Source: Isoetes taiwanensis (lineage: Eukaryota > Streptophyta > Lycopodiopsida > Isoetales > Isoetaceae). From it: DNA of 64,000 bases. Both the position numbers and the translations under genes were made by a program. Each line of letters begins with the position of its first letter. Position 1 is the first letter of the stretch. The DNA lies in NCBI GenBank assembly GCA_021234155.1, contig JAJEKV010000008.1, forward strand, positions 6,262,945 to 6,326,944. Reading direction: 5' to 3'. Shown here one piece after another: positions 6,051 to 62,344 of the stretch. The notes under the pieces are model-generated. The model saw nothing but the letters and a program-made list of their open reading frames with translations, searched no databases and was not told where the DNA came from.

Positions 6051-6079
6051 CAAATCATACCCATACATTTACGCTAGCT

Positions 6080-6409: not shown

Positions 6410-6812
6410 ATAGAGCCTAGATGGCATGTTTGAGCCACCTTGGCATGTTGGAGCCTAGGTGGCATGTTGAAGCCACGTGGCATATTTGAGCCACCTTGGC
6501 ATGTTTGGGCCTAGGCGGCATGTAGGAGCCTGCATGGCATGTTTGAGCCACATTGGCATGTTTGAGCCTAGGTGGCATGTTGGAGTCTAGGTGGCATGCT
6601 CCACCTTGGCATGTTGGAGCCTAGGTGGCATGCTGGAGCCCGCGTGGCATGTTTGAGCCTAGATGGCATGTTGGAGCCCGCGTGGCATGTTTGAGCCACC
6701 TTGGCATGTTTGAGCCTAGGTGGCATGTTGGAGCTCAGGTTGCATGTTGGAGCCTAGGTGGCACGTTTGAGCCACCTTGGCATGTTAGAGCCTAGGTGGC
6801 ATGTTGGAGCCA
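6410..6812. repeat. 18-20-bp minisatellite array A
   Basis: About twenty imperfect units of the form tggcatgttKgagcc followed by tagg, acct or cgcg are arranged head to tail. The unit is shared with the 1.3-kb array at 31660-32975. Reading frames across it (repeated LGMLEPRWHVGA-type peptides) follow from the repeat and are not taken as genes. Confidence 0.9.
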
Positions 6813-7497: not shown

Positions 7498-8237
7498 TGC
7501 AAGTTTCCAAGATTTTTTTTTTGAAGGACGCCAGACTTTATTAATAACATTCCAACATAATACATAATATAATGCAGAGACAAGAATAAAAAATCCAGCG
7601 GACAATCAGATCCAACTGAGCAGGGCCACCCGTCTAAGCATGACAATATAATGCAGTTCACACTATTTTCCTCTCCTAGAAAGAGAAGAATAATATATAG
7701 TCATATTTTTAGAAAAGTTACTTCAACCAGGTCGAACTTCCACATTCATAGAATCTTTAATAGCAACTTGATCTGCTCCCTGGTGTCTCAATGCCATTGA
7801 ATCAGGGACATCCACTGTAACAATCGTAGCAGATATTGGAGCTACAGAGTGAACCAGCGCAGATTGAGGAGCCGAGCTATTTTTGCGACATGCAAGTTTC
7901 TTCAGGCGTGGAGTAGACCATCCTTCTTCCAATAATTCTTGCTTCTGAGCAATGTCCTGGAGACGAGAGTGTTGGTCCTCATTAAGAGGGTCTACTGATA
8001 TAGATTGAGATCGAGATGCAATAGAAGAAGGCGATAGTATAGAAATAGCTAAAGAAGGAGGCACAGGGGCTGGTATTACTGGTGGATTAACTAGTGCAGA
8101 GGCAAATGAGGAAGAAGATGGTACAACACGACATTCAAGTGAGGTGGATGCTATATGACATGGGATAGGAGCAGTTGGGGAGGTAGAGACAAAAGTATGT
8201 CTGGACCTGTAAGTAGCGAAATGCAAGTTTCCAAGAT
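7498..8237 (-). mobile_element. Chimeric or internally deleted LINE with target duplication
   Basis: The 16-bp sequence tgcaagtttccaagat flanks the insert at 7498-7513 and 8222-8237. The duplicated segment at 18482-18497 still shows the empty site. A T run (7513-7522) marks the minus-strand poly(A) end. The first 150 bp match the 3' end of the LINE at 24139 (gaaggacgccagactttatt, then aatgcagagacaagaataaa). Upstream of about 7660 no RT or zf-RVT follows. Instead a 167-codon Pro/Ser-rich ORF (8226-7723), with EEGWSTPRLKK near its middle, resembles the end of a LINE ORF1 or gag. The element therefore joins a LINE 3' end to 5'-type sequence with ORF2 missing. Confidence 0.75.
7723..8226 (-). pseudogene. 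ORF1/gag-like fragment inside chimeric LINE
   Basis: A 167-codon open frame rich in Ser, Pro and Ala contains EEGWSTPRLKK, reminiscent of the GW-basic stretch of plant LINE ORF1 or gag-like proteins. It lacks a visible zinc knuckle. Its first codons run into the target duplication, so the true start is missing. The assignment rests mainly on its position inside a LINE insertion. Confidence 0.4.
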
Positions 8238-14269: not shown

Positions 14270-14908
14270 TTAAGGGATCAATCCATGTTTTTCCACGTAT
14301 TTAACAAGGTGTGGTTCCATGTCAGGCGTTCTATCCAGTTCTGGATACGAATCTAACACTTCACCCACCATCATCCCCATAGCCAAATTATTCATAATAG
14401 ACACAAACTTCACCAGAAAATCATCTGTCGCAAAGTTTTTTGGATCGTAAGATGGTGGATTCAGGGCCTGTGTTTGATTGTAGAAGCATTTGAGAGCATC
14501 ATCATCCACTATGATTATATCATCCTTATTCTCGATACCAAGTTCGTCCATCATGTTACTCAAGTGTTTGATGAAGATAGGCTTGCCTGTTGGATCCTTG
14601 GGATTAGTGAACTTCACACATTTGCTCTGATCCCAAAAGGTCAACCAATGTCTACGCATTTCCCCCAGTGCCTCCAAAGTATCCTTGATGTTCCTTAGTT
14701 CCATGGATGACCAAATACCAACTCGAAATAACCTGAATGCCTCATCTAGCATCTCCTTCAAGTGCGGCCGCGGATAGATCCACTTGGTGTTTGATTCTAC
14801 TGGTGTCTGATGAAACTGATCTCTGGCCACTTTATTTTTCGGAAAAGTCTTGCAAAGGACTCCGTTTAGGTCGAACACCACAACCTTCTTAGAAACGCAA
14901 TGCAAGCT
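14270..14908 (-). CDS. FCP1/HAD phosphatase-like domain, last exon
   Basis: The minus-strand exon follows the acceptor gatgtttcag and encodes about 212 residues. It opens with KKVVVFDLNGVLCKTF, the HAD motif I of FCP1/SCP-like phosphatases with the second Asp replaced by Asn (DLNGV). RPHLKEMLDEAF and VGIWSSMELRNI match motif II, and DDIIIVDDDALKCF matches the motif III DD region. The product ends LVKYVEKHGLIP. The Asn in motif I is common in plant members and weakens a simple claim of catalysis. The exon joins in phase to 15118-15839 across a 209-bp intron that holds four palindromic repeats. The domain is complete and unbroken, so the gene may still be expressed. Confidence 0.75.
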   Translation of the reverse strand, partial: SLHCVSKKVVVFDLNGVLCKTFPKNKVARDQFHQTPVESNTKWIYPRPHLKEMLDEAFRLFRVGIWSSMELRNIKDTLEALGEMRRHWLTFWDQSKCVKFTNPKDPTGKPIFIKHLSNMMDELGIENKDDIIIVDDDALKCFYNQTQALNPPSYDPKNFATDDFLVKFVSIMNNLAMGMMVGEVLDSYPELDRTPDMEPHLVKYVEKHGLIP

Positions 14909-14962
14909 GAAACATCAAACATGTATCTGGTCAGCAAGATACGATCACACAAACAATACAAA

Positions 14963-18636: not shown

Positions 18637-19587
18637 TTTTTTTTGAAGAACTGTGTCATCAATATATTAAAAGAATGGTAATGTTACAAAGCAAGTGAGG
18701 AGGAAGGAGAACTGCCCCAAAGAGACAGTGATACCTCGACACTCCACAACAAACTCACAAAAAAACTGCAACTCTACTGCTGTACAAACCGACCATCACC
18801 ATCTACAACACCCAAGAAATCCCGCCAAATGGCAAACTTCCGCTCTACTAATCCCGGGAACACCAGAAAGCTTTGAAATAGCTTGTACCTGAGTCGAGGA
18901 ATCAGAGAGGCTGCAGGCTGCTGAATCCCCGGAAAGATCCACAACCGCCGCCGCTTCCAAATCAACCACACCAACCAAGCCACGCACAGATGCAAGGCTT
19001 GCTGCCGCAAGAGCGGCCAAGCACCAGGATACACATGAAGCAGCAACTGCTGGCTAGTCAATCTCACCTGAAATAGAGCTCTGACCCAATCCCAGGCAGC
19101 CTGCAAGTGACGGCATAAAACCAGACAATGCTCCACAGTCTCACGATGACGGCCACAACAAGGGCAAAGAGGGCTCACACCCAGCCTAAACTGACTCACA
19201 AGGACATTCACCCTGATACAGCGGTGCACCACCTGCCACAGAAGCACCCTAACCTTCGGTGGGGGAAGTGAGCTCCATGTCCACGTCCAAACCGAGCACC
19301 ATCGAGAACCCGGAAGCTGCAGAGACCACTTGCCTGAAGGGGGCAGAGTGTCATGAATAGCCAACACCCGGTAACAAGACCGCACAAAACAAGAAGACAC
19401 AACATCCGGATGAACCTTCCAAACCTGCACCACCACATCATCCTGAGGAACTATAGGTATGTGTAGCGGAATACTCCCCGCCACTTGTTCCCAGATAGCC
19501 CGGTCACTGCCCTTCAGGCGAAAGCGAGCTCGAAAGAACTCCCACGAAGCTAGCTGACCACCCCAATACCAATCCTCCAAGGTGAGC
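18637..19587 (-). mobile_element. 5'-truncated L1-like LINE, zf-RVT ORF intact
   Basis: The insert begins with a T run (18637-18644) and shares gaagaactgtgtcatcaata with the LINE at 446. Comparison with the empty site at 8376-8414 shows that about 30-35 bp of target (ttgaaaactag to gaggcat) was lost rather than duplicated. The 5' junction falls in a shared gtgag, suggesting microhomology joining. The minus strand keeps an open 268-codon frame (19580-18774). Confidence 0.88.
18774..19580 (-). pseudogene. C-terminal part of L1-like ORF2 (zf-RVT)
   Basis: The 268-codon frame has no start because the element is 5'-truncated. It contains VRVLLWQVVHRCIRVNVLVS and CPCCGRHRETVEHCLVLCRH, the reverse-transcriptase zinc-binding domain of plant L1-like ORF2. 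A Trp/Arg-rich stretch follows (VWLIWKRRRLWIF). It retains neither RT nor endonuclease, so it cannot mobilise itself. It is the best preserved piece of this family here. Confidence 0.85.
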
Positions 19588-19870
19588 GCAGAGCTTCATG
19601 GATATGCCATTCAGCTTCTTCTATATGCTGATGACCTTGTTCTTTTTGCTCGCACACATGCACATATGCAGCAGGTACTTGATCTTCTCGCTATTTTTTG
19701 TGACAAAATAGGTATGCAAAATATGGATAAAACTCACATTATGATTGTTGGGGCACTTAAACAGGCATAGGAATTTATGTATCAAGGAGGCTGGTTGAGA
19801 CATGTGATACTTATAAGTATTTGGGAAGGGTATGGATATCTGGCAAGGTCATTAAAAAGCTATGGATGAT
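19588..19870 (+). pseudogene. LINE RT YADD fragment, right part of interrupted copy
   Basis: After the L1 insertion the older LINE continues with HGYAIQLLLYADDLVLFART and HAHMQQVLDLLAIFCDKIGM, then KTHIMIVGALKQA. YADD is the RT active site. The sequence is collinear with 8415-8610. Confidence 0.8.
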
Positions 19871-24138: not shown

Positions 24139-25099
24139 TTTTTTGTTGAAGGACGTCAGACTTTATTCCATCAAAGAATCAAATACAAGTATAAATGCAG
24201 AGACAGGAATAAAATCTCAGCGGATAAGCAGAGACCCACCGAGTGAAGCAACCTGCCTAAGCATAAGAGTGCACATCCAAATACTCCTCAAAAATCAATC
24301 GCCTCTTGCGAGGGGCAAGTGAAGAACAATGATACGACTTTACAATGTAACCTTGAGCTTCTTGGAGAACACGATTATCTGCCACATCCAGACCTTTGAA
24401 GATTACCAATCTTCGTCTTTTCCAGATAGTCCAAAGCAACCATCCTGCTGCTAGATGAAAAGCCTGGCCTTGTAACTCTGTCCAGGTACTTGGGTAAATT
24501 GCCAAAAGCAGTTGTTGACTTGTTAGTGAAACCTGAAAAAGGGAAAACAACCAGTCCCATACCTGTCTAAGGTGTTCACACATGAAAAAGCAATGCTCAA
24601 TGGTCTCAGATCCACGCTTGCATACTGGACACTGATTTGATATTCTAGGGTTAAACTTATGGACAAGCACATTAACCCGCAGACACCTATGAAGAATCTG
24701 CCACCAAAGAACTGCCACTTTAGGATGAAGTAGCTTGTCCCATGCCCAAGACCACACCTTCTGCCATTGAGGAGGAGGAAGTTGAAGAGACCACTTATTA
24801 GACGGAGGAAGAATATCAGTATCAAGCAACAACTGATACATAGAGTTCACAAGTTTGCACTCCTTAATTTCTTCATGACAAACCCATACCAAAATATCTT
24901 CTTGGTGTGGCAGAATAGGCTGTAGAAAATCAGCAACTTTTTGCCAAAGAACTCTATCCCATCGCCCCAATAGAAACTTTAACTGAAAAGCCTCCCATGT
25001 CAGCAACTGGCCTGAGTCATACCATGCTGCAATAGTTAAGATTCCAGCACTTTTCCAACGTCTTTGAGTCAATGGGTGCACTGTAAAGCAAAGTGGTTG
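24139..25099 (-). mobile_element. 5'-truncated L1-like LINE with 16-bp target duplication
   Basis: attacaatgcaatgtt flanks the insert at 24123-24138 and 25100-25115, and copy A has the single empty site near 10064. A T run at the left marks the poly(A) tail on the minus strand. The 3' region matches the chimeric element at 7513. The insert carries a 284-codon C-terminal ORF. Confidence 0.93.
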
Positions 25100-25111
25100 A
25101 TTACAATGCAA
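24257..25111 (-). pseudogene. C-terminal part of L1-like ORF2 (zf-RVT), second subfamily
   Basis: The open frame reads VAVLWWQILHRCLRVNVLVH and CPVCKRGSETIEHCFFMCEH, a zf-RVT domain clearly related to, but diverged from, the copy at 18774-19580. GWLLWTIWKRRRLVIFKG follows in the same relative position. The frame's first codons overlap the target duplication, so it is a truncated ORF2 end. Confidence 0.85.
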
Positions 25112-25188
25112 TGTTCTTCATGACCCATGGGATAAAGAGCATAATGTTGACCATGCAAATCCTATGACTTTCTTAAAAGTTAAACTAC

Positions 25189-29169: not shown

Positions 29170-31655
29170 GAATTGTGCCTCCGCATGGTCTCCTGGAATT
29201 GTCGGGGCTTCCCATGGCAGAAGGGGGATAGTCTCAACTCAATTGCCGCAGACATGGATCTCATCTTCCTCATGGAAACATGGGAGCATGCAGGACACAG
29301 GATACCCGACTTGCCAGGATACCAGCGCTACTCAATCTTCAATGATTGCATAGGAAAGCGGGGGCATGGAGGGGTTGCCTGCTACTACTGAACGGCCTTG
29401 GCACAGTCAATCTCCTTGTTCAAGACAGACAAGCACAACCGGTACCTGTGGGTACGTGTGCAAAACTGCAGTAGCAGACCTCTCTTTGTGGCAGCCTGCT
29501 ACTTTCCACATGCAGAGAGCAACTTCTATCACACCCACTCGGATATGGATAGGGTGGACCCTTATGTCGATCTATATGATGACATACAGCAGCATAAGCA
29601 GTTGGGAAGTGTCATACTCCCTGGAGACTTTAATGCATGCACGGGGGTAGAACAACCCATGAGATTTGATCCCTTGACTGATGATGTATTGCAACTGCAT
29701 CCTGCAGAAGGAGCTTGGCCACGGACATCAGACGACAATCAGGTCACGCGCTATGGTAGACAATTGCTTTTGCTCTGTGGTATCTTTGACCTGATAATTT
29801 GCAATGGACTGGCACAGTGGCCGTCCACCCGCAAGAGCACTCGTAGACAGGAAAACCAGGGGGGAGGATCTAATGTGATGGACTATGTGCTGGTGCCTGA
29901 GCAAGATATGCATGGCGTCAAGCACTTCCAGGTGGGAACAGCTAATAGGGATGAAGAGATAGACTCAGACCACTTACCACTTTACTTGAAGTTGGCTTGG
30001 CAGGTTGTGCGAACCCCTGTGCAACAACTCCTCGCATGCCTCAGTTGCGATTGGATTATGAACATGCAGGGGCTTATGCCCATATGCTTAGAAAATTCGC
30101 AATATCCTATACTAGAATAACAGACAGGCTGGCTGATTGATGTGCTTAGGACTGCGACAGAGAGGTGCTTTGGGATAAGCCGCCAGCGACGAGGAATACA
30201 ACCTTCCCACGTAATCAATGGTTTGATACAAAGTGCAAGGAACACAAATGTTGGCTCCACCAGGTCACAGACCCTGCTTTACGCCCACATGCAGTCAGAC
30301 AGTACCGCGTCTTCCTTAAAGCTAAGAAAGCCAGGTACATTGCAGCTCATCAAAGGGAAATGTTTTACCTCCTGGAATGTCACCCCAGGACCTTGTGGCG
30401 AAAGGTTCTCAGAAAGCCAGTACAACCCATAGGAAACATCACTCCCGAGCAGTGGAGGCAATATTTGCAACAGCTATATGACCCTCAGGGTGCACAGGCA
30501 GCATTACCCCTGCAAGAAGGCCCAGTGTTGGAAATCACAGATTTGGACATGGAACAAGGCTTACACCATCTTGCCAATGGGAAAGCGCCAGACCTGGATG
30601 GTATGCAGGTAGAATTGCTTAAGTGGGCAGGGCCGTCCATAGTACCGGTGCTGACCACCTTGCAGTGGACCAATAGCAGAGTTGTTCCCATCTATAAGGC
30701 AGGTGACCCGCACTGTCCAGCCAATTACCGAACAATCATGGTCAGTTTGGTGTTTGCAAAACTGGTTGCTGGGATTCTCAAGAAGCATTTGACGGGTTGG
30801 GCAGAGGCAGCAGTGGTGCGGGCCCTCACCCAGGCAGGATTCAAACTCCAGCACTCAACCATTGACCACATCTTCATGTTGCGAATTCTGTTTGAAGAGA
30901 GCAGGAACTGCCGTCAGGATCTATATTGTTGCTTCGTGGATTTTGCGAAGGTGTTTGACACTGTGCCTCGGGAAAAACTATGGGCAAGATTGCGACAGCT
31001 AGGGGTTCCTGTAGATTTGCAGAATGCAGTGTACATGTTATATGAAAGATGCTCGGGTCGGTTGCAGCCGACAAGCCAACCATTTGATAGTAGTATTGGG
31101 GTTCGTCAGGGATGCCCTCTCTCCGCAACATTATTTGGGCTTTACATTGATCAATTGGAGAGCTGACTTGCTGATAATGGGGGCGACGGAGCTCACCTTT
31201 CGCACGGATCATCGAGGCGGTTAATATGTGCTGATGATGTGGACCTCCTAGCTTACACACCAGCAGATATGCAACGACATCTCGATGCCCTGGACACATT
31301 CTGCCAAGACTAAGGTGGTTCTCATATCATCCCCATGTCGGTAGAGAATCCCTCCTTTAGTTATCGAGGCGGGGATGTGGAAGTGGCATCCACATACAAA
31401 TATTTGGGAGTGGAGTTTCCTTCTACTATGCACTGGGACACATCAATATGGCTACGAGTGACGGCGGGCTGTAAGGCACTATATGCAATGCAAAACAATA
31501 GTCATAGAGCAGAGTTATATGATTGGGCCCATCGGTCACACACCCGTTCAAAGTCATAGTGGAGCATGTCCTTTTATCTGAGGGGTTGAAGTATGGGGCC
31601 CAGTAGTATCCCTCGCTACTTGGAATGACTTAGAGCAGGTGCAGAAAGCCTTTCT
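29170..31655 (+). pseudogene. LINE ORF2: endonuclease and reverse transcriptase, broken
   Basis: The endonuclease (29185-30010) keeps MVSWNCRGFPW, FLMETWE, VILPGDFNACTG and SDHLPLYL, the EEP catalytic blocks, interrupted only by a TGA at 29389-29391. After a stop near 30118 the RT follows in another frame: AGDPHCPANYRTIMVSLVFA, AGFKLQHSTIDH, CCFVDFAKVFDTVPREKLW and IGVRQGCPLSATLFGLYID. The YADD region appears as CADDVDLLAY in a third frame near 31230. The coding trace ends at LEQVQKAFLP (31655), where the minisatellite starts. It is more like RTE-type LINEs than the zf-RVT L1 family (inference). Confidence 0.85.
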
Positions 31656-31659
31656 GCCC

Positions 31660-32975
31660 TAGGTGGCAAGGTGTTGGAGCCTAGGCGACATATTGGAGCC
31701 TATGTGGCATGTTTGAGCCACCTTGGCATGTTTGAGCCTAGGTGGCATGTTGGAGCCCACGTGGCATATTTGAGCCACCTTGGCATGTTTGAGCATGTTG
31801 GAGCCTTAGGTGGCATGTTTGAGCCACCTTGGCATGTTGGAGCCTGGGTGACATGTTTGAGCTACCTTGTCATGTTGGAGCCTAGGTGGCATGTTGGAGC
31901 CACCTTGGCATGTTATTGGAACCTAGGTGGCATGTTGGAGCCCATGTGGCATGTTTGAGCATGTTGGAGACTAGGTGACATGTTTGAGCCACCTTGGCAT
32001 GTTGGAGCCACCTTGGCATGTTGGAGCCTAGGTGGCATGTTTGAGCTACCTTGTCATGTTGGAGCCTAGGTGGCATGTTGGAGCCACCTTGGCATTTTTT
32101 AGCCTAGGTGGCATGTTTGAGCCACCTTGGCATGTTTGAGCCACCTTGGCACATTGGAGCCTAGATGGCATGTTGGAGCCCGCGTGGCTGAACCACCTTG
32201 GCATGTTGGAGCCTAGGTGAGCCTACGTGGCATGTTTGAGCCACCTTGGCATGTTTGAGCCTAGGTGGCATGTTGGAGCCTAGGTGGCATGTTGGAGCCT
32301 AGGTGGCATGTTTGAGCACCTTGGCATGTTTGAGCCACCTTGGCATGTTGGAGCCTAGGTGGCATGTTAGAGCCCATGTGGCATGTTTGAGCCACCTTGG
32401 CATGTTGGAGCCTAGGTGGCATGTTGGAGCCCACATGGCATATTTCAGCCACCTTGGCAAGTTGGAGCATAGGCGGCATGTTGGAGCCCACGTGGCATGT
32501 TGGAGTCTAGGTGGCATGTTTGAGCCATTTTGTCATGTTGGAGCCTAGGTGGCATGTTGGAGCCACCTTGGCATGTTTGAGCCTAGGTGGCATGTTAGCC
32601 CACGTGACATGTTGGAGCCCACGTCGCATGTTGGAGCCCACGTGGCATGTTTAAGCCACCTTGGCATGTTGGAGCCTAGGTGGCATGTTGGAGCCCACGT
32701 GGCATGTTTGAGCCACCTTGGCATGCTGGAGCCTAGGTGGCATGTTAGAGCCACGGTGGCATGTTGGAGCCTAGGTGGCATGTTTGAGCCACCTTGGCAT
32801 GTTTAGGTGGCATGTTGGAGCCCACGTGGCATGTTTATGCCATCATGGCATGTTTGTGCCTCCATGGCATGTTTGAGCCACCTTGGTGGCATGTTTGAGC
32901 CACCTTGGTGGCACGTTTGAGCCACGTTGGCATGTTTGAGCCTAGGTGGCATGTTTGAGCCAAGTGGACAGAAAA
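31660..32975. repeat. 18-20-bp minisatellite array B (about 1.3 kb)
   Basis: Dozens of head-to-tail units of tggcatgttKgagcc plus a variable 3-5 bp (taggt, acctt, cacgt) fill the interval. Higher-order alternation of taggt and acctt units is visible. Six or more reading frames on both strands stay open (LGMLEPRWHV and complement MPPRLQHAT), as expected from the repeat. The array shares its unit with array A at 6410-6812 and replaces the 3' end of the LINE ORF2. Confidence 0.93.
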
Positions 32976-52156: not shown

Positions 52157-52161
52157 ACAAT
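52157..52161. repeat. Target-site duplication, left (acaat)
   Basis: acaat directly precedes the left LTR end and is repeated at 62340-62344. Confidence 0.95.
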
Positions 52162-53141
52162 TGTTAGAGGTCTGTCACCCCTCTAGCACATAACACAGAT
52201 CTTACAATCAACAGACATCAAATACTTATTAGACCGGAGATTGGAATTGAATGTGAGATTTAGTAACATACCCAGGATGCATTAAGCCAGTTTGAAAGCT
52301 CTCCCATGCTTGCAGTGTCAATGTTCAAGGAAGGAATTTGCTCCATTGCCTAGTATGCGAATGTAGAATGGATTTAAGATAGAACACGGCAAAACAATCT
52401 AAACAAGATTTACAGATCAATTCTCAAGACAAGTAACAATTCTCATTGATTGATTGCACAAGAATAACAAGGACAAATATCAACATGGAAAACATGGTAA
52501 ATTCTTGCATACAGAATGGAATAGCTTTTGCATAGAACAGTTGGGAAACAGATCCTTCTCTTCAATCTGGGCCCAGTATAGTCAAATCCGCCAAGTATGG
52601 TCAGATCCGGCTCTCCTCCTCTGGTTTCCGCTGACTCCTCATATGTCACCTCTGCTATATCTTTGCGCTTCTTTGCTTCACGCCTCTTCCCAAAATAACG
52701 GTTCATATCTTGTTTTTGCTTTTTAACATAATTGTTGACTTTCAATGGTTAACCTTTAACTTTGCGTTTCATTCCTTTAAGACCTTTAATTGTTTCCTTA
52801 GTATTTTTCCATTGTATGGTCTACGTTGCCCTTGTTTATGTTGGTGCTTTTACTTCATACTAAGGTACATGTTGTGACCTTTAAAAGGCCAACATTATTT
52901 TTACGTTGGCATACTTTTATTGCCCTTGTTGCCTTACTCTAAACCTTCCACATACTTCAAGGTTACTTGCTTGTCTTTTGTTTAACACATTTAAAATATC
53001 TACTTCTAACTTGTCTTTAACATACCAACTTAACAATTAAAACAAGATTACAATGTCTTTTAGTCCGAGTCTTCATCACGGCGTCTTGCTCGCTTGAAGT
53101 ATGTTGGGGGTTCGTCTTCCACAAGCTCCAAGTCCCCAACA
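52162..53141 (-). repeat. 3' LTR (980 bp)
   Basis: Same termini as the 5' LTR. The last 27 codons and stop (53060) of the polyprotein lie inside its U3 region. The only visible difference from the 5' LTR is near 52639-52661 (tcacctctgctatatctttg here). Confidence 0.95.
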
Positions 53142-56100
53142 TCCTTCTCCCCCCCTTTAGAGGAGAGCGTATGCTCTCCATGCTGGTCTGGTGGAGGTGG
53201 TGCAGACAAGAGAAGATGATGCTGCTTGCAATTCCTGTAAAAATGAAAGATGTCAATTTTTCTTCGACCTTTCATAGCTGCATCTGTATCATAGTAAGAA
53301 GCCGAAGCATCAATAAGGAAATTCCTTTGAGCCATTTCTTCAAAAAGTTTGAGACATGCTACTGGCAAATGGTTAGACTTGAGGAAAATAGCAGTGTCCA
53401 TCATGGTACGTTTGCATGAAAGATTGGGATTGATATTAATCAACAATTCTTTTGAGTGCGTCTGAGGTTTCGTAAGCAATTGTAAAAACTTGCAATACTT
53501 GACCTGTTGATAAATCAAGGGATCCGGGCTGTTTTGAGCTTGCTCAATAAAATATTCTAAGTTTTGCCAAATCTCTGCTGGTCTTTCCCATGAATCACCT
53601 GGAATTATGGCCCAATTATCTAGCCGTTGTTGATCAGCATCTTTCCACATGTGACGTCGCTGGAAACGTGGATCAAAGTTGCAATCGTTTTGCAAATATT
53701 GAGGTGCCTTAAGAAGGTTCAACTGAACTGTTCGATTTTCAAGATATTTCTGTCTCCAATGATCATCAAATTTTGGCACATAAATGGGAAGATGGAAAAG
53801 ATCGTCAGATAAGGCAGCTTTTTGTTGGTTCGAACAGAATGTTTCAATTTGACTCCACAGTGTTTTGTCAGGAAAAGTCTTTTTGATCTCTTGCCATTCA
53901 GCATTCGTAACTGGAGACCAAGCGATCTGAGATAAGAGTATTGGTGGATACTCCAATTTTTGAAAATATTGATTATGATTGCAAATAACTTGGGACATGG
54001 AGCGGATCCAAATATGATAATCATATTTGGGATCATCAAAGCTAATCTTCATGGCTTGGTATAAGATCGTTTTTGCTTGCTGATAGTGATGTTTGAAGTT
54101 TGCTTCTGCTAACTCATGGTCTTGGTCAGGTAAGAAGGGTAAAAGCACAATATTGGGAAGGAAAGTGCATGGTGTTATGGGTTGTGCCATGACTTCATCA
54201 TAATTCTGATTTGATTCCCATATCCGCACATGGACTTCAGCATAATACGTTAAGATATAGCCTTGTACATCAATAACCCAAGCTTGACATAATTCTGAAT
54301 TTTCTAATAAAAGATGGTTATGACAAACTGCAGTAACAAATAATCTCTGATCATAGAATGAGAGTTTGAACCAGAAGATCATAAACCTAGAATCTGATAT
54401 AGGTTTGAGGGGATTAATACCAAAAGATAGAAGTTTGAGCTTCAAGAGCATCAAGTCATATTGGTAATTTAACTCCAAGTTGGAAGGTCTCGGAAAGTGG
54501 ATATCTTGAGCAATTTGAGTAAGGGAGGTCTTAACATCCATAACCTGTTGCTGCAACTCTTGATTCTCTGCTCGCAAATCTTGCAGAGTCTGCAAAACCT
54601 TTTGCATCTTAACTTGGAATTGTTGCTTTTGCCTCTCAAATGTGTCATGCAATTGAGACATGTTAGTAGCAAGTGGTAAGCTTGGTTTATCTAGTTGGCT
54701 CTGTAAATTGGCACACTTTAATTCCAACTGCATATTGGCTTCCTGCTTAGATACGAGCTCAACTTCTAAATGTTGAATTTGTTTCTGTAATTGTTCCACC
54801 TGTGCTTGAGTATTAGCAATGATGGCGTCCTTGGAGTCCAGTAGCTCTTTAAGAAAATTCTCTTGTCTTTGAAAAAAATCTTTCATTTTGATTGTAACAT
54901 CGGTAGTATCTTTAGTCTCTTGAGTAACTGGTTCAGCGTACATTACCATGGGATCGTCCTGCACAGGTGGGATTTCTTGAGGCAAAACATTGGAGGGTGC
55001 CTGATGAGACATAACATAATTAAGGATTAATTGTAGTTGCGTAGCAAATGGCAACTGTTGCGTATAGTAATCTTTAACATGGTTTAGTTGGATTATTAGT
55101 TGCCGTGTAAAAATAGTTGCCCAAGGCATAAGTATGCCCTTTGTAGATAAAATAACCCTCGTGAGCCACTTCTTGGATAATGTATGAGTGTTGTATGCCA
55201 TCATCTTTTTCTTCAAATGCAGGAAGATGGCATGATATGGAGCCCTTGCGGCCTTGATGCTATATTGATTAGCTACCTTATATATGCCATACTCTTCAAG
55301 ATCAAAATCTTGATAATAAGGAAGAGTAGGTGCATCTGGAAGTTGTAAAGCATGTTGTACCAAAGTGGCAGTGATAGAGAATGGTCCAGTTTGGAATGTG
55401 GTTGCTGAACACGCATCTGGATCGTAAGTATTTATGAAATGATAGATGATGTTTGGATTTGGTGAAGCAAACTCTAGCTTCACAAAGTCAAGCAATTGTG
55501 CTCTTTCAAGCAACTTAAGAGCTTCAGCATTTAAGGTTGGCAGTCTATGAAAATGAATACATGGCAATGATGGATAATAGAGTGGTGTTATGAACGTGTG
55601 AGTTCGCATAAGAGCCTTTGCCTTCATCTTAAATTGGACCTTCTTAAGTATAGATGCTTTGTTGGCAGGGGCTTTGGAAACTTGGGCTTCCTGCTTGAGT
55701 GCAAAACCCTTGGGTTTTACTGTGTTAGATGTAGCATAATATTGATGCCACCATCTTCGTTGTTCTATGTGATATTGGGCTCGTTTTTGTTCATATAAGA
55801 GGCGTCCCATAATCTGACTTCCTTTGTCAGATTTTCGCCTCCCTAAACCCACAATAAAAACAATTTTATGGGGTGGCCAATAACCAATCTGATACATGGC
55901 ATTCATAAACTGTAAACTTGAAAGTACATGCATTGATGGGTCTGCCCACCAATGTTTACATGCAGGCCCTGGTAATGGTAAAAGCAATAAATGCAATTCA
56001 GCTCTTTGAGATCTGGCAGTCTCTAGTTTCAACATAAAACCCCTTCTTGATGTGTATTCTTCCCACTCCCAAAGATAAAGAGTGAAGTACGGTCTTTCAA

Positions 56101-59100
56101 GAGTTAGAGTATTCAGTCGCTGCCTTTTAATAGGCTGAACCATATTAACAGATAATGTGGTCCGCTCATGATATGGTTTTAATCGGGATCCATTGATCAA
56201 TGTTGGCCATAAATGTCCATCCAGATCTTTCAACTGCACAGATCCATTAGTATTCAACTCTTCAATGATAAATGGTCCTAACCAACGTATTTTCAATTTT
56301 CCAGGATATTTGAAGAACCTGGAATCGTAAAGTAAGACTTTATCACCCTTTTTATAGTCATGGCGACGTAATTTATGATCAAACCAAGCTTTTTGGCGAT
56401 CCTTGGCCACTTGTTGAGCCCAAACAGCTTGTTGCCTAGTCTCATCCAATTGTTCTAGTTTGAGAAGCCGATGTTCTAAGGATTGTACATCCCCTAGCCT
56501 CTCTTTGATAGCAATACGAAGACTAGGTATGACAAATTCAGCTGGTAAAACTGCCTCTACACCATAAGAAAGTTGAAATGGTGTTTGTCCAGTTGCACAT
56601 TTAAAAGTGGTGCGATAGGCCCACAGTATGGCAGGCAGTTTGGTTTCCCAGTCAGTACGGGTGGAATCACAAACTTTACGCATGATATTGATGAGAATCT
56701 TATTGGTTGATTCTGCCTGACCATTGGCACGGGGGTAATATGGAGTAGACTTTCTATGCATTATGAGAAAGTCTGTTGTAAGTATTTCCACAGTCTCATT
56801 GATAAAGTGCACACCACGATCTGAGACTAATTCAATTGGGCATCCAAATCTGGTAATAATTTGCTGGTATAGTACTTTGGCCACACTCTTAGCCATGTTG
56901 TCTTTCAATGCCCTGGCCTCCGCCCATTTGGTATGATAGTCAGTTAAAATCAATATGTACTGGGCCCTCGTATATACAGCAGGAGGTGTTATAGGACCAA
57001 CGAAATCCATGCCCCATTTCTCGAATGGGCCCAAAGGTAAAATTGGATGTAATGGCATGTAATTTCGTGGTCCAGGTTTTCCTACTCTTTGGCAGATATC
57101 ACAAGTTTTGGCCCAAGCAAAAGAATCTTTGAATAGAGTAGGCCACCAAAACCCACTTTGGAGGATTTTCTTGGATGTGAGCTCACCAGAAAAATGTCCT
57201 CCTCCAATGCCATCATGGGCTTCTCTCAAAAGGTCATTAATCTCATGGGGCAAAATGCAACGTCGTAGTACATGGTCTTTACCTTTCTTATATAATTGCC
57301 CAGAAATTAAACAAAATGGAGAAGCTTTTTTCACAAAGTCTCTCTTTTGAGAGATGTCCATTCCTTTAGGACAATCTCCTGTAGCCAAATATTCCACAAT
57401 TCCTGCATACCAAGGTGGTACTGCATTCACTCTAAATAAATTAGCATCAGGAAGTTCATCATTTATTCCCATTGGAAGTTCACCATTGGGAATTCGTGAT
57501 AAATGATCAGGTACCGTGTGAGAAGTGCCTGGCTTAAGGACAATCTTGAAATTATACTCCTGTAATATCAACAACCAACGGTGTATACGTCCAGTCACAC
57601 ATGGTTTGTTGATGAGATATAATAATGCTTGGTGATCTACATAGAACACAAAGAAATTTCCCAGGAGGTAGTGTCGAAACTTTTGGACCGCATATACCAT
57701 GCCAAGTCCCTCGCGTTCTGTGGTAGAGTAATTTTGTTCAGCTTTGTTAAGTTGCTTGCTAGCATAATAGATTGGCTGATCTCTGTTACAATCTTTTTGT
57801 TGAGTTAGTACAGCCCCAATTGCAGTTTTCGAAGCATCAATATGTACATGGAATGGTTTGTCCCATTGTGGTGTGATCAGAATGGGTGCTTTTGCTAATA
57901 TTTCCTTTAAATGGACAAAGGAATCTTGACATTCATTAGTCCATATGAACCTCTTGTTTGAGCTTGTTAATTCGTTCAAAGGGGTTGCAATCTTAGAGAT
58001 ATTTTTTCCAAAGCGCTTGTAATAGTTTACTTTGCCTAGAAAACGTCGGAGTTGGGTAATGTCGCTTGGTGGAGGCATCTCTAAGATTACCTTAACTTTG
58101 TCAGGATCTGTAATCAATCCCTCTTTACAGACTATATGGCCTAATAATAAACCATGTGTTACCAAAAATGTGCACTTTTCTGGATTTAACGAGACTCCAA
58201 ATGCTCGACATCTCTGAAAACATTTTTGAAGTCCGTTCAAATGTTGCGACCATTCACTAAAGACGGTAAAGTCGTCGAAAAAAATCTCCATGAAGGTGCC
58301 AATATATCCCTTGAATACTTGTAGCATAATCCTTTGAAATAAGGATGGGGCGTTAGTAAGGCCAAAAGGCATGACACGATAAGCATAGGTTCCAAATTGG
58401 GTAATGAATGTTGTTTTTAATTGATCTTCAGGGTGGATACGAATTTGATTGTATCCACTGAATCCATCCATGAATGAGTAACATTCATGTCCAGCAACAT
58501 TTTCAAGAACCTGGTCTGTAAAGGGCAAAGGAAAGTGATCCTTTTCAGTGACATCATTCAACCTGCGATAATCAATGCATACTCTTAATTTTCCATTCTT
58601 TTTCTTAACAATGACCACAGGTGATACCCAGTCACTAGTTTCTACTTCATAGATAAATCCTGCTTGTAGCAAACTTTGTATTTCTTTTTCAACTGTTTGA
58701 GCATAACTAGGATTCATCCTATATGCTCGTTGATACACGGGTTTTGCATTTGGCATAAGGGGTATTCTCAATTGACAAGTATCTGGATGTATGCCACGTA
58801 AATCTTGGTAATTCCATGCAAAAATATCTCTATAATTTTCCAACAACAAAGTGGCTTCTTGTAATATTCCTGGCGGTAAGTGAGCCCCAATTTTTATTAT
58901 TTTCTTATTCTCAGGAGTACCCAGATTTATTTCTTGAAGTTCAGGTGCTTCAAGATAAGGTTTAAGTTGTCCCTTCTCTAAACCATGTGCTGGTTTAGGT
59001 GACACTTCCGCTTTTCCCTCAGTCACTTTTGTGAAATGCTCTGGATAGTCTTGGACAGCTTCTACCATGAGACATGAACATGTTTCCTTTTCAAGTTCAT

Positions 59101-60571
59101 ACTCAGAATAAATATTGACATTATAAAAATTTTCTTCCTCTTCAAAACCTTCATAGACATCCTCTTCATTATCACTATCAGAAAGTACCACATTATCTTC
59201 AATAATAGTGGTAATGCCCGTGGGTAAATTGATTTTAGTCAGTTTTCCATCCTTAGCCAAGGTTAATGTATCATTGCACCAATCATGTAAAGCTCTGGAT
59301 TGTCTTAACCATGGTCTACCCAATAGTAGCTGATAATCCCTTACTTTAACTTGGGTGTCGAGTACTACAAAATCCTGGCAAAACTCTAAATCTCCAATCA
59401 TAAACACCACAGATTTTAATATTCCAAGGGGTTGCACTTTTCGCTGGTCTGCCATCTTTACATCAAAGGGAGCTTTTTGTAAGTCTGTAAATCTGAGTCT
59501 TTTCCTTAATGTGTTGGTCATAATATTCACCCCAGCCCCACCATCGATGGGTACATTGGGTATTATGAGTCCATTCATTTCTACTTTTACCATTGGATTG
59601 CTTTTATCCATTGGCTCAGATTTATAAGTTGTAATTATATCACGAGTGTGATATAACTCCGCAGGTATGCCTAATTCAGGCACGTAAATTCCCAAAAGTT
59701 TAAGGGGTACTTGGATCAGAGTTTCTTTCACCACTTGGCTCAAGTTGTGGATTTCAACACTGCGATTGTTATTTTCCACTGGAAATTCTTTAAAACCTGG
59801 TAAATATTTAGCAACCACTTTAAGTGGTGTTGGAATAAGTAGCTCGTGTACTTGAGCTTTCAATTTTGTTAACTCATCAGTATTGTGATCAACCATAGAC
59901 TTATCTTGTTCATCATTTTCATGTTGTAAGTTATCTATTTGATTTTTGACAAAATCAAATACTTCTTTCTCTTGTTCAATATCAGGATACCTATTTTGTG
60001 TACCCCTCGGATTTCCCTTTGGAAAATCTGAAATCGTGATGGCATCCTTATTAGCCTTAGCACGAGTTATAGCATTAACTGCATATTCAAGGCTAATCAT
60101 TCTTGCGTCTTCCGCTTTAACATCTACTTGCTCCTTAGAGTCTGTAGATTTCTCTTTCTTTGGTTTTCTACATTCACGAGAGTAATGTCCCTTACCCCCG
60201 CAATTCCAACACTCAATTACTCTTGTATTCCTATGTTCCTTAGTTTCTGGAATCACAGCAAAAGTTTGAGCAGTATCCCTTTCTTTCTTTTTGTTAAAAT
60301 AACAATCTTTAGTATTGTGATTATCTTTCTCACAGATATGACAATACTTTCTCTCAGAATTAGATCGGCATTCGTTGGCATAGTGTCCAGGCTTAGAGCA
60401 TCTGGTACACCAAATTAAAGTTCTATTTCTTTCACCCAGAGACAATTTTCGCATGTCTTGTTCCATTGTTTGCAATTTTGATTGCATTTCTTTCATACTT
60501 TTAATCTCATGTGCAACTTGCTTTTGCACAATGGATTCCAGTTCAGGCTTGTTGCTCTTGTCAATGGCCAA
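53060..60571 (-). CDS. pol: Nucleocapsid-Pol polyprotein with ~1,000-residue C-terminal extension
   Basis: An open frame of 2,503 codons; the listed start is only the first possible codon after the frame junction. Order: three CCHC knuckles (residues 55-68, 77-90, 121-134); aspartic protease with PIDGGAGVNIM (341-351) and LLLGRPWL (415-422); RT about 640-815 with FFDDF (764-768); RNase H 905-1025 (VHIDASKTAIGAVL); integrase with CDIC zinc site (1157-1160) and D1189, D1251, E1287; and a GPF-type integrase C-terminus (WLGPFIIEEL, about 1430-1440). From about 1478 to the end there is no family I recognise: a globular-looking part (1500-1870), a coiled coil (about 1890-2022), a long second part (2023-2430), and an acidic/basic tail crossing the PPT and ending in the 3' LTR. 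No chromodomain is seen. Confidence 0.93.
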   Translation of the reverse strand: MAIDKSNKPELESIVQKQVAHEIKSMKEMQSKLQTMEQDMRKLSLGERNRTLIWCTRCSKPGHYANECRSNSERKYCHICEKDNHNTKDCYFNKKKERDTAQTFAVIPETKEHRNTRVIECWNCGGKGHYSRECRKPKKEKSTDSKEQVDVKAEDARMISLEYAVNAITRAKANKDAITISDFPKGNPRGTQNRYPDIEQEKEVFDFVKNQIDNLQHENDEQDKSMVDHNTDELTKLKAQVHELLIPTPLKVVAKYLPGFKEFPVENNNRSVEIHNLSQVVKETLIQVPLKLLGIYVPELGIPAELYHTRDIITTYKSEPMDKSNPMVKVEMNGLIIPNVPIDGGAGVNIMTNTLRKRLRFTDLQKAPFDVKMADQRKVQPLGILKSVVFMIGDLEFCQDFVVLDTQVKVRDYQLLLGRPWLRQSRALHDWCNDTLTLAKDGKLTKINLPTGITTIIEDNVVLSDSDNEEDVYEGFEEEENFYNVNIYSEYELEKETCSCLMVEAVQDYPEHFTKVTEGKAEVSPKPAHGLEKGQLKPYLEAPELQEINLGTPENKKIIKIGAHLPPGILQEATLLLENYRDIFAWNYQDLRGIHPDTCQLRIPLMPNAKPVYQRAYRMNPSYAQTVEKEIQSLLQAGFIYEVETSDWVSPVVIVKKKNGKLRVCIDYRRLNDVTEKDHFPLPFTDQVLENVAGHECYSFMDGFSGYNQIRIHPEDQLKTTFITQFGTYAYRVMPFGLTNAPSLFQRIMLQVFKGYIGTFMEIFFDDFTVFSEWSQHLNGLQKCFQRCRAFGVSLNPEKCTFLVTHGLLLGHIVCKEGLITDPDKVKVILEMPPPSDITQLRRFLGKVNYYKRFGKNISKIATPLNELTSSNKRFIWTNECQDSFVHLKEILAKAPILITPQWDKPFHVHIDASKTAIGAVLTQQKDCNRDQPIYYASKQLNKAEQNYSTTEREGLGMVYAVQKFRHYLLGNFFVFYVDHQALLYLINKPCVTGRIHRWLLILQEYNFKIVLKPGTSHTVPDHLSRIPNGELPMGINDELPDANLFRVNAVPPWYAGIVEYLATGDCPKGMDISQKRDFVKKASPFCLISGQLYKKGKDHVLRRCILPHEINDLLREAHDGIGGGHFSGELTSKKILQSGFWWPTLFKDSFAWAKTCDICQRVGKPGPRNYMPLHPILPLGPFEKWGMDFVGPITPPAVYTRAQYILILTDYHTKWAEARALKDNMAKSVAKVLYQQIITRFGCPIELVSDRGVHFINETVEILTTDFLIMHRKSTPYYPRANGQAESTNKILINIMRKVCDSTRTDWETKLPAILWAYRTTFKCATGQTPFQLSYGVEAVLPAEFVIPSLRIAIKERLGDVQSLEHRLLKLEQLDETRQQAVWAQQVAKDRQKAWFDHKLRRHDYKKGDKVLLYDSRFFKYPGKLKIRWLGPFIIEELNTNGSVQLKDLDGHLWPTLINGSRLKPYHERTTLSVNMVQPIKRQRLNTLTLERPYFTLYLWEWEEYTSRRGFMLKLETARSQRAELHLLLLPLPGPACKHWWADPSMHVLSSLQFMNAMYQIGYWPPHKIVFIVGLGRRKSDKGSQIMGRLLYEQKRAQYHIEQRRWWHQYYATSNTVKPKGFALKQEAQVSKAPANKASILKKVQFKMKAKALMRTHTFITPLYYPSLPCIHFHRLPTLNAEALKLLERAQLLDFVKLEFASPNPNIIYHFINTYDPDACSATTFQTGPFSITATLVQHALQLPDAPTLPYYQDFDLEEYGIYKVANQYSIKAARAPYHAIFLHLKKKMMAYNTHTLSKKWLTRVILSTKGILMPWATIFTRQLIIQLNHVKDYYTQQLPFATQLQLILNYVMSHQAPSNVLPQEIPPVQDDPMVMYAEPVTQETKDTTDVTIKMKDFFQRQENFLKELLDSKDAIIANTQAQVEQLQKQIQHLEVELVSKQEANMQLELKCANLQSQLDKPSLPLATNMSQLHDTFERQKQQFQVKMQKVLQTLQDLRAENQELQQQVMDVKTSLTQIAQDIHFPRPSNLELNYQYDLMLLKLKLLSFGINPLKPISDSRFMIFWFKLSFYDQRLFVTAVCHNHLLLENSELCQAWVIDVQGYILTYYAEVHVRIWESNQNYDEVMAQPITPCTFLPNIVLLPFLPDQDHELAEANFKHHYQQAKTILYQAMKISFDDPKYDYHIWIRSMSQVICNHNQYFQKLEYPPILLSQIAWSPVTNAEWQEIKKTFPDKTLWSQIETFCSNQQKAALSDDLFHLPIYVPKFDDHWRQKYLENRTVQLNLLKAPQYLQNDCNFDPRFQRRHMWKDADQQRLDNWAIIPGDSWERPAEIWQNLEYFIEQAQNSPDPLIYQQVKYCKFLQLLTKPQTHSKELLININPNLSCKRTMMDTAIFLKSNHLPVACLKLFEEMAQRNFLIDASASYYDTDAAMKGRRKIDIFHFYRNCKQHHLLLSAPPPPDQHGEHTLSSKGGEKDVGDLELVEDEPPTYFKRARRRDEDSD
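53142..53158 (-). promoter_or_regulatory. Polypurine tract
   Basis: AAAGGGGGGGAGAAGGA on the minus strand directly abuts the 3' LTR start TGTTGG. It primes plus-strand DNA synthesis. It is also translated, in the frame SKGGEKD of the polyprotein. Confidence 0.9.
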
Positions 60572-61254
60572 AAAATACCGATAATCACAGCAGCTCTTTT
60601 AACTGCCAGATCTAAAGTACTTGGAGCATCTAATTCTAGTTGTTGCTTCAAACGAGTTGGAAATCCCTCAATGAACCAGGCAACCACATCTTCCTGATGG
60701 GGTTCCGGTTGCATTTGATTGGTAAGTTCTAGTACTCGTAAAGAAAAGTTTCTTGGATGCTCTCCTGGTTTGATTTGTAATGCACGGACCTCATCCTTTA
60801 ACTCTTTATTTGTAGGAGTGGTTTGAAATAGATTTAAAAATAATGTACGCATCTCAGACCAATTGGTGAAATTGGCTGAAGATCCATTGATCCAATCTGC
60901 TGGTTTTCCATCTAAAGTAGTAGGAAATAGCATTAATCTGTGGGCGTCAGTATCCTGCCCATTCAGAGAGCTAATATTTTCAAATTGTCTCACATGTGTT
61001 TTGGCTTGGTACTCACAAGTTTTACCAGACCCATAACGAGGATAAGAAATTATAGGCTTAGATGTTAGAGCAGATGCCCCAGACGCAGATGAAGTCATGG
61101 TAAAAATATTTTTTAAATCTGGCAAGATCTCAGAATGTCTTTCAGCAGCTAATTTTTCCTTAGCTCTACGCTCACGTCTTTCTGCTCTTTCTAATTCTTG
61201 TTTATCACGCAATTCTTTGCGCTTTTGCCTTTCCTCAGCAAGGCTTTTGTACAT
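60493..61254 (-). CDS. gag: Gag (capsid) of Ty3/gypsy element
   Basis: The ATG at 61254 lies 79 bases after the primer-binding site. A charged helical N-terminus (about residues 1-45) precedes the capsid domain, with ADWINGSSANFTNWSEMRTL and FLNLFQ, the Retrotrans_gag (PF03732-type) signature, at about 115-145, and LIKPGEH/PRNFSLRVLELTNQM after it. The frame ends 253 codons in, past a T6 run at 60570-60575 where the pol frame takes over by -1. The nucleocapsid zinc knuckles lie in the next frame, so a functional Gag would need the shift, or the T run has lost a base in this copy. Confidence 0.9.
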   Translation of the reverse strand: MYKSLAEERQKRKELRDKQELERAERRERRAKEKLAAERHSEILPDLKNIFTMTSSASGASALTSKPIISYPRYGSGKTCEYQAKTHVRQFENISSLNGQDTDAHRLMLFPTTLDGKPADWINGSSANFTNWSEMRTLFLNLFQTTPTNKELKDEVRALQIKPGEHPRNFSLRVLELTNQMQPEPHQEDVVAWFIEGFPTRLKQQLELDAPSTLDLAVKRAAVIIGIFWPLTRATSLNWNPLCKSKLHMRLKV

Positions 61255-61333
61255 AAAAGAACGTATATTTTATCACAGCTTTTGTTCATGAAAGAAAGCA
61301 TATGTTATCACAAATCTATGCACTCAATGCCTG

Positions 61334-61351
61334 TCCCCGGCATCGGCGCCA
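61334..61351 (-). promoter_or_regulatory. Primer-binding site for tRNA-Asp
   Basis: TGGCGCCGATGCCGGGGA on the minus strand, four bases from the 5' LTR, is complementary to the 3' end of plant tRNA-Asp (TCCCCGGCAACGGCGCCA) at 17 of 18 positions. It starts minus-strand DNA synthesis. Confidence 0.9.
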
Positions 61352-61355
61352 AATA

Positions 61356-62339
61356 TGTTAGAGGTCTGTCACCCCTCTAGCACATAACACAGATCTTACA
61401 ATCAACAGACATCAAATACTTATTAGACCGGAGATTGGAATTGAATGTGAGATTTAGTAACATACCCAGGATGCATTAAGCCAGTTTGAAAGCTCTCCCA
61501 TGCTTGCAGTGTCAATGTTCAAGGAAGGAATTTGCTCCATTGCCTAGTATGCGAATGTAGAATGGATTTAAGATAGAACACGGCAAAACAATCTAAACAA
61601 GATTTACAGATCAATTCTCAAGACAAGTAACAATTCTCATTGATTGATTGCACAAGAATAACAAGGACAAATATCAACATGGAAAACATGGTAAATTCTT
61701 GCATACAGAATGGAATAGCTTTTGCATAGAACAGTTGGGAAACAGATCCTTCTCTTCAATCTGGGCCCAGTATAGTCAAATCCGCCAAGTATGGTCAGAT
61801 CCGGCTCTCCTCCTCTGGTTTCCGCTGACTCCTCATATGCTGCCGGCCTCTGCTATATGCTGCCGCTTCTTTGCTTCACGCCTCTTCCCAAAATAACGGT
61901 TCATATCTTGTTTTTGCTTTTTAACATAATTGTTGACTTTCAATGGTTAACCTTTAACTTTGCGTTTCATTCCTTTAAGACCTTTAATTGTTTCCTTAGT
62001 ATTTTTCCATTGTATGGTCTACGTTGCCCTTGTTTATGTTGGTGCTTTTACTTCATACTAAGGTACATGTTGTGACCTTTAAAAGGCCAACATTATTTTT
62101 ACGTTGGCATACTTTTATTGCCCTTGTTGCCTTACTCTAAACCTTCCACATACTTCAAGGTTACTTGCTTGTCTTTTGTTTAACACATTTAAAATATCTA
62201 CTTCTAACTTGTCTTTAACATACCAACTTAACAATTAAAACAAGATTACAATGTCTTTTAGTCCGAGTCTTCATCACGGCGTCTTGCTCGCTTGAAGTAT
62301 GTTGGGGGTTCGTCTTCCACAAGCTCCAAGTCCCCAACA
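61356..62339 (-). repeat. 5' LTR (984 bp)
   Basis: Begins TGTTGGGGACTTGG and ends CCTCTAACA on the minus strand, with TG...CA termini. It matches the 980-bp 3' LTR except near 61833-61860, where this copy has the phrase atatgctgccg twice. As the 5' LTR it should carry the promoter for the genomic RNA. Confidence 0.95.
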
Positions 62340-62344
62340 ACAAT
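62340..62344. repeat. Target-site duplication, right (acaat)
   Basis: acaat directly follows the right LTR end, matching 52157-52161. Confidence 0.95.

What the first reader, a model, noticed from the sequence alone, without database searches (positions are those of the whole stretch)
53060..56140. A ~1,000-residue unknown protein fused in frame behind the integrase
Seen: after the integrase C-terminal GPF region (about residue 1477) the same frame continues for about 1,026 residues with no stop. It includes a predicted coiled coil (about 1890-2022). Known: some plant Ty3/gypsy lineages (Athila, Tat/Ogre) carry an extra ORF, usually separate from pol. Inference: this lineage has fused an additional structural or env-position protein to pol, which would need cleavage by the element's protease.
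Basis: partly seen in the sequence, partly recalled or inferred. Interest (0 to 1): 0.75.

Follow-up and report, generated by a model that had tools for sequence, protein, structure and literature searches.

The report
Conserved orphan protein fused to fern pol
A jumping gene in what looks like a fern genome carries a roughly 1,000-residue protein of unknown type welded directly behind its integrase, and other families of the element in the same genome keep the same fusion under selection, so it appears to be a real working part and not an accident of one copy.

Summary
Confirmed and strengthened. Window 52162-62339 (minus strand) is a young Ty3/gypsy LTR retrotransposon. Its 2,503-codon ORF (53060-60571) runs NC-PR-RT-RH-IN and then, without a stop, about 1,034 further residues through the polypurine tract into the 3' LTR. 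The extension is coding (z 7.5). It has no relative in Pfam, NCBIfam, PDB or two protein-database searches.

The window's own genome gave 71 matches; I studied 20 copies in at least six groups. RT-IN is 71-80% identical to the window in the four tested, while extensions of other families are only 26-34% identical. One alignment crosses the junction in 13 of 20 copies, none with a stop at the integrase end. L057 encodes Gag-Pol-extension in one 2,319-codon ORF. Where measurable the extension's dN/dS was below 1 (0.16-0.85).

It has a central coiled coil and no predicted transmembrane segment, so an envelope is not supported. Sense extra ORFs behind pol are known in plant elements, and Neumann et al. 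mention some that are part of the polyprotein. This is a new, lineage-wide variant with an undescribed protein family. Function is inferred only. This copy's gag frame is broken.

The parts
52162..53141 (-). 3' LTR (980 bp, TG..CA); target-site duplication ATTGT at 52157-52161
61356..62339 (-). 5' LTR (984 bp); target-site duplication ATTGT at 62340-62344; identical to the 3' LTR except one patch of about 25 bases
61334..61351 (-). primer binding site TGGCGCCGATGCCGGGGA, 4 bases after the 5' LTR (tRNA-Asp-like by recall)
60493..61269 (-). gag ORF (Retrotrans_gag, E 9e-5, 23.0 bits against Pfam's cut-off of 24.1), in a different frame from the zinc knuckles; the frames change at a run of six T (60570-60575)
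60164..60412 (-). zinc knuckles (nucleocapsid part of Gag)
59252..59608 (-). protease region with IDGGAG active-site motif (residue 343); approximate limits
   Evidence: sequence; P0006 and P0063 align there
58133..58609 (-). reverse transcriptase (PF00078, E 1.9e-28)
57554..57943 (-). RNase H (PF17917/PF17919); no second RNase H and no chromodomain hit
56732..57244 (-). integrase zinc-binding domain and catalytic core
56165..56374 (-). integrase C-terminal GPF region ending in NGSRLKPYHE (residue 1469)
53063..56164 (-). the in-frame extension, residues 1470-2503
55652..56104 (-). extension block X1 (about 1490-1640): WEW .. PLPGP..KHWW .. FM.AMY..G.WP..K in the window; recurs with changes in other families
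54932..55504 (-). extension block X2 (about 1690-1880): LP.L..A.LL.FV .. TG.I .. L.LP(N/D) .. PWAT...QL
54500..54907 (-). coiled coil (about 1889-2024), two segments
53162..54499 (-). extension block X3 (about 2025-2470): YQYDL..LK .. NFDPRF.RR .. NWAII
53063..53141 (-). last 26 residues of the ORF, encoded by the 3' LTR; the ORF also enters the LTR in family B (L049, L052)
53142..53158 (-). polypurine tract, translated as part of the ORF

Best explanation
The extension is the C-terminal module of a Gag-Pol-X polyprotein kept by a lineage of Ty3/gypsy elements in this genome. Shown: X lies in the integrase frame with no stop between; it is conserved across several families that differ at about 70% of its residues; and it has been under purifying selection where that can be measured. 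Inferred: X is an extra ORF of the kind found between pol and the 3' LTR in plant elements that has become locked into the polyprotein. It is made as part of Gag-Pol-X, is carried into the virus-like particle with integrase, and is released, or left on integrase, by the element's protease. With its two-part coiled coil, basic first 200 residues and no membrane anchor, it most likely works as a soluble oligomerising factor on the nucleic acid/integrase side (particle architecture, nuclear entry or choice of integration site) rather than as an envelope. I put the fused, selected module at about 0.9 and the integrase/particle-side role at about 0.35; the field below rates the statement as a whole.
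For: Open 2,503-codon frame with coding codon usage. Own-genome search: 71 matches (a lower bound), many at 31-37% identity, several in open frames. One alignment crosses the junction in 13 of 20 fetched copies, with no stop at the integrase end. L057 is one 2,319-codon stop-free ORF with Gag, three CCHC knuckles, DGGA, FLDD, integrase and extension. dN/dS of the extension in family A was 0.18-0.67 in 5 of 5 loci, against 0.23-0.58 for pol in the 4 loci that have it. Of 120 possible pairs among 16 extension segments, 28 passed the length and identity filter; all 28 have dN/dS below 1 (0.16-0.85) and 18 of 28 have P<0.05 (pairs not independent). The five extension-bearing RT-IN rows of this genome form one clade with support 100. 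First two stretches basic (pI 10.1 and 10.4), no TM by hydropathy.
Against: No enzyme motif, homolog or usable structure model supports any particular function (models at mean pLDDT 35 and 32). Frames change within about 25 residues of the junction in L045, L049 and L054; I read these as lesions because other members of the same groups are in frame, but they are damaged copies either way. Copies with an LTR next to X and no detected pol (L048, L052) show that X need not stay attached to integrase in every copy. Cleavage sites were not tested. Only one genome was examined. Of the copies fetched, only the window's is stop-free from the zinc knuckles to the end of X, and its gag is out of frame; L057's frame ends before X3 is complete.
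Confidence: 0.6

Rival explanations
1. It is an envelope-like protein in the env position, as proposed for Athila, Bagy-2 and SIRE elements, merely fused to pol.
For: Right position and orientation; plant env-like ORFs share little sequence with each other, and a coiled coil is an env feature (PMC1142308 passages).
Against: No transmembrane segment by hydropathy in the 1,026 residues scanned (highest KD19 1.24; window copy only); the fused position would put a membrane protein behind a cytosolic polyprotein (inference).
Confidence: 0.07
2. The extension works as a separate protein, from an internal start or spliced RNA, and the open junction is only a by-product of compact packing.
For: A Met sits at residue 1477, close to the junction, and near it in L044, L057, L059 and L061; plant env-like ORFs can be expressed by splicing (PMC7264820 section 4); X survives without pol in L048 and L052; L045, L049 and L054 change frame near the junction.
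Against: None of 13 crossing copies has a stop at the integrase end; several families would each have had to avoid a stop there without selection; L057 is one uninterrupted ORF.
Confidence: 0.25
3. The fusion is peculiar to this copy (read-through mutation or assembly error).
For: The gag frame of this copy is broken at a homopolymer, so small errors exist.
Against: Same frame and related sequence across the junction in 13 other copies of several families.
Confidence: 0.02
4. The extension is homologous to known plant retroelement extra-ORF domains (plant mobile domain, Transposase_28, Athila ORF-1 and similar), diverged beyond detection.
For: Similar architecture of a globular block followed by a coiled coil (recall). 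A profile of block X2 aligns over 157 columns with the post-integrase tail of P0053, scoring 24.7, above all 150 shuffles.
Against: No Pfam family listed at E up to 10 for four segments that leave out the coiled coil, and none of these families in a scan of all 13 aligned members. In one search the tail of P0056 scored higher (26.5) and that of P0013 (20.9) also exceeded the shuffles, so the score is not specific; single-sequence comparison gave nothing.
Confidence: 0.25

Closest known systems
Extra ORFs between pol and 3' LTR, sense (eORF-3'F / aORF-3S) of plant OTA (Athila/Tat) and SIRE elements
   Same: Position, orientation, fast divergence, no recognisable domain; Neumann et al. 2019 (passages) say some eORFs are part of the polyprotein in some elements and separate in others, and left those out of their analysis.
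   Different: Here in frame with integrase in several families of one lineage, with measured purifying selection and one shared protein family.
Athila / Calypso env-like ORF
   Same: Sits behind integrase; [quoted passage not shown]
   Different: No transmembrane segment; joined to pol; the window's RT-IN lies outside the angiosperm group (support 100; 11 rows, 8).
Chromoviral integrase C-terminal chromodomain
   Same: A module attached to the integrase C-terminus (general knowledge).
   Different: No chromodomain hit; about twenty times longer.
P0010 and P0053, unnamed database pol proteins of the same clade
   Same: In-frame tails of 397 and 473 residues behind integrase.
   Different: Tails not demonstrably homologous to X; P0010's tail holds a protease-like domain instead.

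Membership tests
Ty3/gypsy LTR retrotransposon | order PR-RT-RH-IN with LTRs, PBS, PPT and target duplication | tested here: met
OTA superclade (Athila/Tat), non-chromovirus | no chromodomain | tested here: met
   no chromodomain match in Pfam
OTA superclade (Athila/Tat), non-chromovirus | RT groups with Athila/Tat references | tested here: inconclusive
   no labelled reference element was in the trees; the OTA name rests on recall and on the hits being plant elements of this type
Tat | additional archaeal-type RNase H | tested here: not met
Athila | RT groups with Athila references | tested here: inconclusive
   no labelled Athila reference in the trees; the window lies outside the angiosperm group
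Envelope-like ORF | transmembrane segment | tested here: not met
   KD19 maximum 1.24; hydropathy only, window copy only
Envelope-like ORF | spliced subgenomic mRNA | not testable with these tools
   no RNA data
Sense extra ORF (eORF-3'F) | coding sequence of at least 250 codons between pol and 3' LTR, sense | tested here: met
   but not separate from pol
Known extra-ORF domains (PMD PF10536, Transposase_28 PF04195, Athila ORF-1 PF03078) | Pfam match | tested here: not met

The most novel reading that the evidence does not exclude
X is a new, undescribed protein family that has become an obligate fourth part of the retrotransposon polyprotein (Gag-Pol-X) in a fern lineage: a fast-evolving, oligomeric particle component that travels with integrase, can persist alone in pol-less derivatives, and so represents a retroelement gene plan other than gag-pol or gag-pol-env.
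Probability: 0.3. Interest if true: 0.72.

Novelty: new variant of a known kind. Interest (0 to 1): 0.56.

Why it matters
Whether the extra ORFs of plant retrotransposons do anything is an open question: Neumann et al. 2019 raise it (passage). Here the extra protein is part of the polyprotein, is shared by families whose extensions differ at about 70% of residues, and within one family shows purifying selection comparable to pol, which makes a function testable. It also gives a clean case for asking how a third protein joins a retroelement without becoming an envelope.

Tried and rejected
Homology of the extension: protein database searches over candidate lengths of about 564-1796 and 1377-4380 residues found nothing; both need shared 5-residue words, so distant relatives are missed. 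Pfam, NCBIfam, PDB and phage records gave only weak, mostly coiled-coil hits or nothing. Scans of viral contigs found no relative for the extension, pol or the pol alignment. The genome-contig scan with the pol alignment gave 22 loci at 25-46% identity in bacterial bins, distant and not used.

Structure prediction without an alignment was useless (mean pLDDT 34.9 and 31.6).

Resemblance of the extension to the P0053 tail: BLOSUM62 no (58 of 200 shuffles reach it), BLOSUM45 4 of 200 (one of 16 comparisons made there), single-sequence hhalign no (60 of 100 shuffles reach it), full profile E 0.088, X2 profile above 150 of 150 shuffles but exceeded by the P0056 tail. Left as suggestive only.

Programmed frameshift between gag and the zinc knuckles: the T run lacks a canonical slippery heptamer (by recall) and L057 has gag in frame, so a lesion or assembly error in this copy is more likely.

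PPT-side hairpin: folding energy not unusual (z -0.63).

A test of whether this genome also holds close pol copies without X did not complete (and repeats), so I cannot say how many related elements lack it.

Full report
The element. On the minus strand, 52162-62339 is a complete LTR retrotransposon: 984- and 980-bp LTRs (TG..CA), target duplication ATTGT on both sides, a primer binding site 4 bases after the 5' LTR and a polypurine tract before the 3' LTR. The LTRs are identical except for one patch of about 25 bases, so the insertion is young, with the caveat that the patch is unexplained. Pfam places zinc knuckles, reverse transcriptase, RNase H and integrase in Ty3/gypsy order; no second RNase H and no chromodomain match. 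The gag ORF lies in another frame; the frames change at six T's.

The observation. The ORF is 2,503 codons. The integrase ends in NGSRLKPYHE at residue 1469 and the frame goes on for about 1,034 residues, through the polypurine tract and 26 codons of the LTR. Random sequence of that composition has about 57 stops in such a length. With pol's codon usage the extension scores z 7.5 above stop-free random sequence, fairly evenly along its length.

What public data show. No relative of the extension was found in Pfam, NCBIfam, PDB, phage records or two searches of a 5.8-billion-protein set. Of 6,159 pol hits I saw the best 120. Of these, 100 reach the integrase end: 91 have a tail under 25 residues, 4 have 25-59, and 5 have 60 or more. 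That search excluded proteins over about 1,536 residues, so it is biased against fusions. Four of the five long tails (P0009, P0010, P0013, P0053) fall in the 15-row clade of the window (FastTree support 0.98; forks inside it are weak, 0.46 and 0.69); P0009 and P0053 are near-identical. The clade holds six database rows that reach the integrase end, so 4 of 6 against 1 of 94 elsewhere (P0056). The tails are not clearly related to each other or to X. The only named fern protein in the list, from Adiantum nelumboides, is in this clade.

What the window's own genome shows. After nine unanswered tries, one search of the genome (1.66 Gb, 1,110 contigs) returned 71 matches to the extension, a lower bound because only 45 of 2,757 candidates were scored. 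I fetched 20 copies. They form at least six groups: A (window, L043-L047), B (L048, L049, L051-L053, L060, L062), L050, C (L054, L055, L061), D (L057, L058) and L059. L056 was not in that comparison but reads like B at the junction. RT-IN identity to the window is 71-80% for the four tested (full length in L053 and L057, partial in L059 and L062) and with the window they form one clade with support 100; the extensions of groups other than A are only 26-34% identical to the window's, so X evolves far faster than pol.

Junctions. One alignment runs across the integrase/extension junction in 13 of 20 copies. Being one alignment, these are in frame by construction; that none has a stop there is not. 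In all 13 the integrase frame stays open at least about 20 codons past the integrase motif. Most copies are otherwise damaged by stops and frameshifts. Against this, the frame changes within about 25 residues of the junction in L045, L049 (which also has a duplicated integrase end) and L054; L045 is of group A, L049 of B and L054 of C, and other members of each group are in frame (window and L044; L051, L060 and L062; L061), so I read these as lesions. Of the remaining copies, L047, L048, L052 and L055 show no integrase, L046 has a gap from 1427 to 1690, and in L050 sequence unlike integrase abuts its last residues. L057 has Gag, three CCHC boxes, DGGA, FLDD, integrase and the extension to about residue 2328 in one stop-free ORF of 2,319 codons; its LTRs are 95.8% identical. 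It lacks the part matching 2023-2269 and its frame ends before the last block is complete. L058 and L059 also cross the junction in open frames of 866 and 1,020 codons.

Selection. Against the window, group-A copies give extension dN/dS of 0.20, 0.25, 0.67, 0.18 and 0.37 (L043-L047), pol 0.25, 0.23, 0.58 and 0.33 (L043-L046); the other 15 copies are saturated and give no estimate. Between segments of the other groups, 28 of 120 pairs had enough similar codons; all are below 1 and 18 of 28 differ from neutrality at P<0.05. The pairs share branches, and stops were left out, so this is evidence of past constraint, not a precise rate.

Anatomy of X. Alignment A2 (13 rows, 1,094 columns, mean column identity 37%, no invariant column, rows partly incomplete) shows X1 (WEW, PLPGP..KHWW, FM.AMY, WP..K), X2 (LP.L..A.LL.FV, TG.I, L.LP, PWAT...QL), a coiled coil, and X3 (YQYDL, NFDPRF.RR, NWAII). 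The first 200 residues are basic (pI about 10). No 19-residue stretch of the window copy exceeds hydropathy 1.24. In family B the ORF also runs into the LTR and ends in a similar FKR..RR tail.

Reading. A fused, selected, lineage-wide module is well supported. What X does is inferred: as a soluble coiled-coil protein delivered behind integrase it most plausibly acts in the particle or with integrase. The env reading lacks a membrane segment.

Literature, as seen. Neumann et al. 2019 (PMC6317226, passages): most OTA elements have extra ORFs; these fall into 314 groups in Ty3/gypsy; only 21.4% of eORF proteins (both superfamilies together) resemble known domains; ORFs that were part of the polyprotein in some elements were removed. 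Vicient and Casacuberta 2020 (PMC7264820, abstract and sections 4 and 8). Retand (PMC11963269, passages). Tat/aRH paper (PMC10508981, passages). Diaspora (PMC1142308, passages). Orchid 2-ODD elements (PMC9289625, passages: there the extra ORF is separate). Tmesipteris (PMC9916801, passages: Athila is 88-94% of Ty3/gypsy in two ferns). My searches (the lists of 28, 40 and 58 were cut) listed no paper whose title or abstract start describes a fern Gag-Pol-X polyprotein; most subscription papers are not held.

Noticed in passing
P0010 residues 1038-1434 (database protein, same clade): Its in-frame tail behind integrase holds a protease-like domain (LLDSGADANIM); the protease regions of several pol proteins match it (best E 5e-5, P0090), and its ORF starts just before RT with no upstream protease. 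This suggests a moved or second protease.
   Followed up: partly
window 53162-53179 and L043, L046, L048, L049: A perfect 7-bp hairpin (GGAGAGC ATAC GCTCTCC) sits just before the polypurine tract. Family B (L048) has the same inner core with different outer pairs that still match, and L043 and L046 keep the stem with changed loops.
   Followed up: partly
L048 oriented 4616-7302; L052 oriented 4066-8213: Copies with an LTR, or a piece of one, joined almost directly to the extension and no detected gag, RT or integrase; L048 keeps an 832-codon open extension frame and L052's LTRs are 96% identical, so possible non-autonomous forms carrying X alone.
   Followed up: partly
L043 and L046 against the window: Mostly 93-99% identical through about residue 1800, then 81-83% over 1910-2110 (coiled coil) and about 87-95% after: looks like recombination between subfamilies inside the extension.
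   Followed up: partly
window 60570-60575: Frame change between the gag ORF and the zinc knuckles at a run of six T; L057 has gag and pol in one frame.
   Followed up: partly
window about 52646-52665 and 61839-61863: The only LTR difference is a clustered patch with a 4-base gap, all else identical: conversion, or an assembly artefact.
   Followed up: no
L050 oriented about 4500-4700: Sequence that looks like a zinc knuckle (HDTKDCYHN) abuts the last residues of integrase, as if a deletion joined gag to the extension (by eye).
   Followed up: no
window 6394-6876 and 31669-32820: Two tandem arrays of related 19-base units 25 kb apart.
   Followed up: no
window 18774-19595, 24257-25117, 29392-31166: ORFs that look like LINE-type endonuclease/reverse transcriptase pieces by eye.
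   Followed up: no
window 14270-14914 (-): Open frame resembling a HAD-type (NLI-interacting/CTD) phosphatase by eye, possibly a host gene or pseudogene.
   Followed up: no
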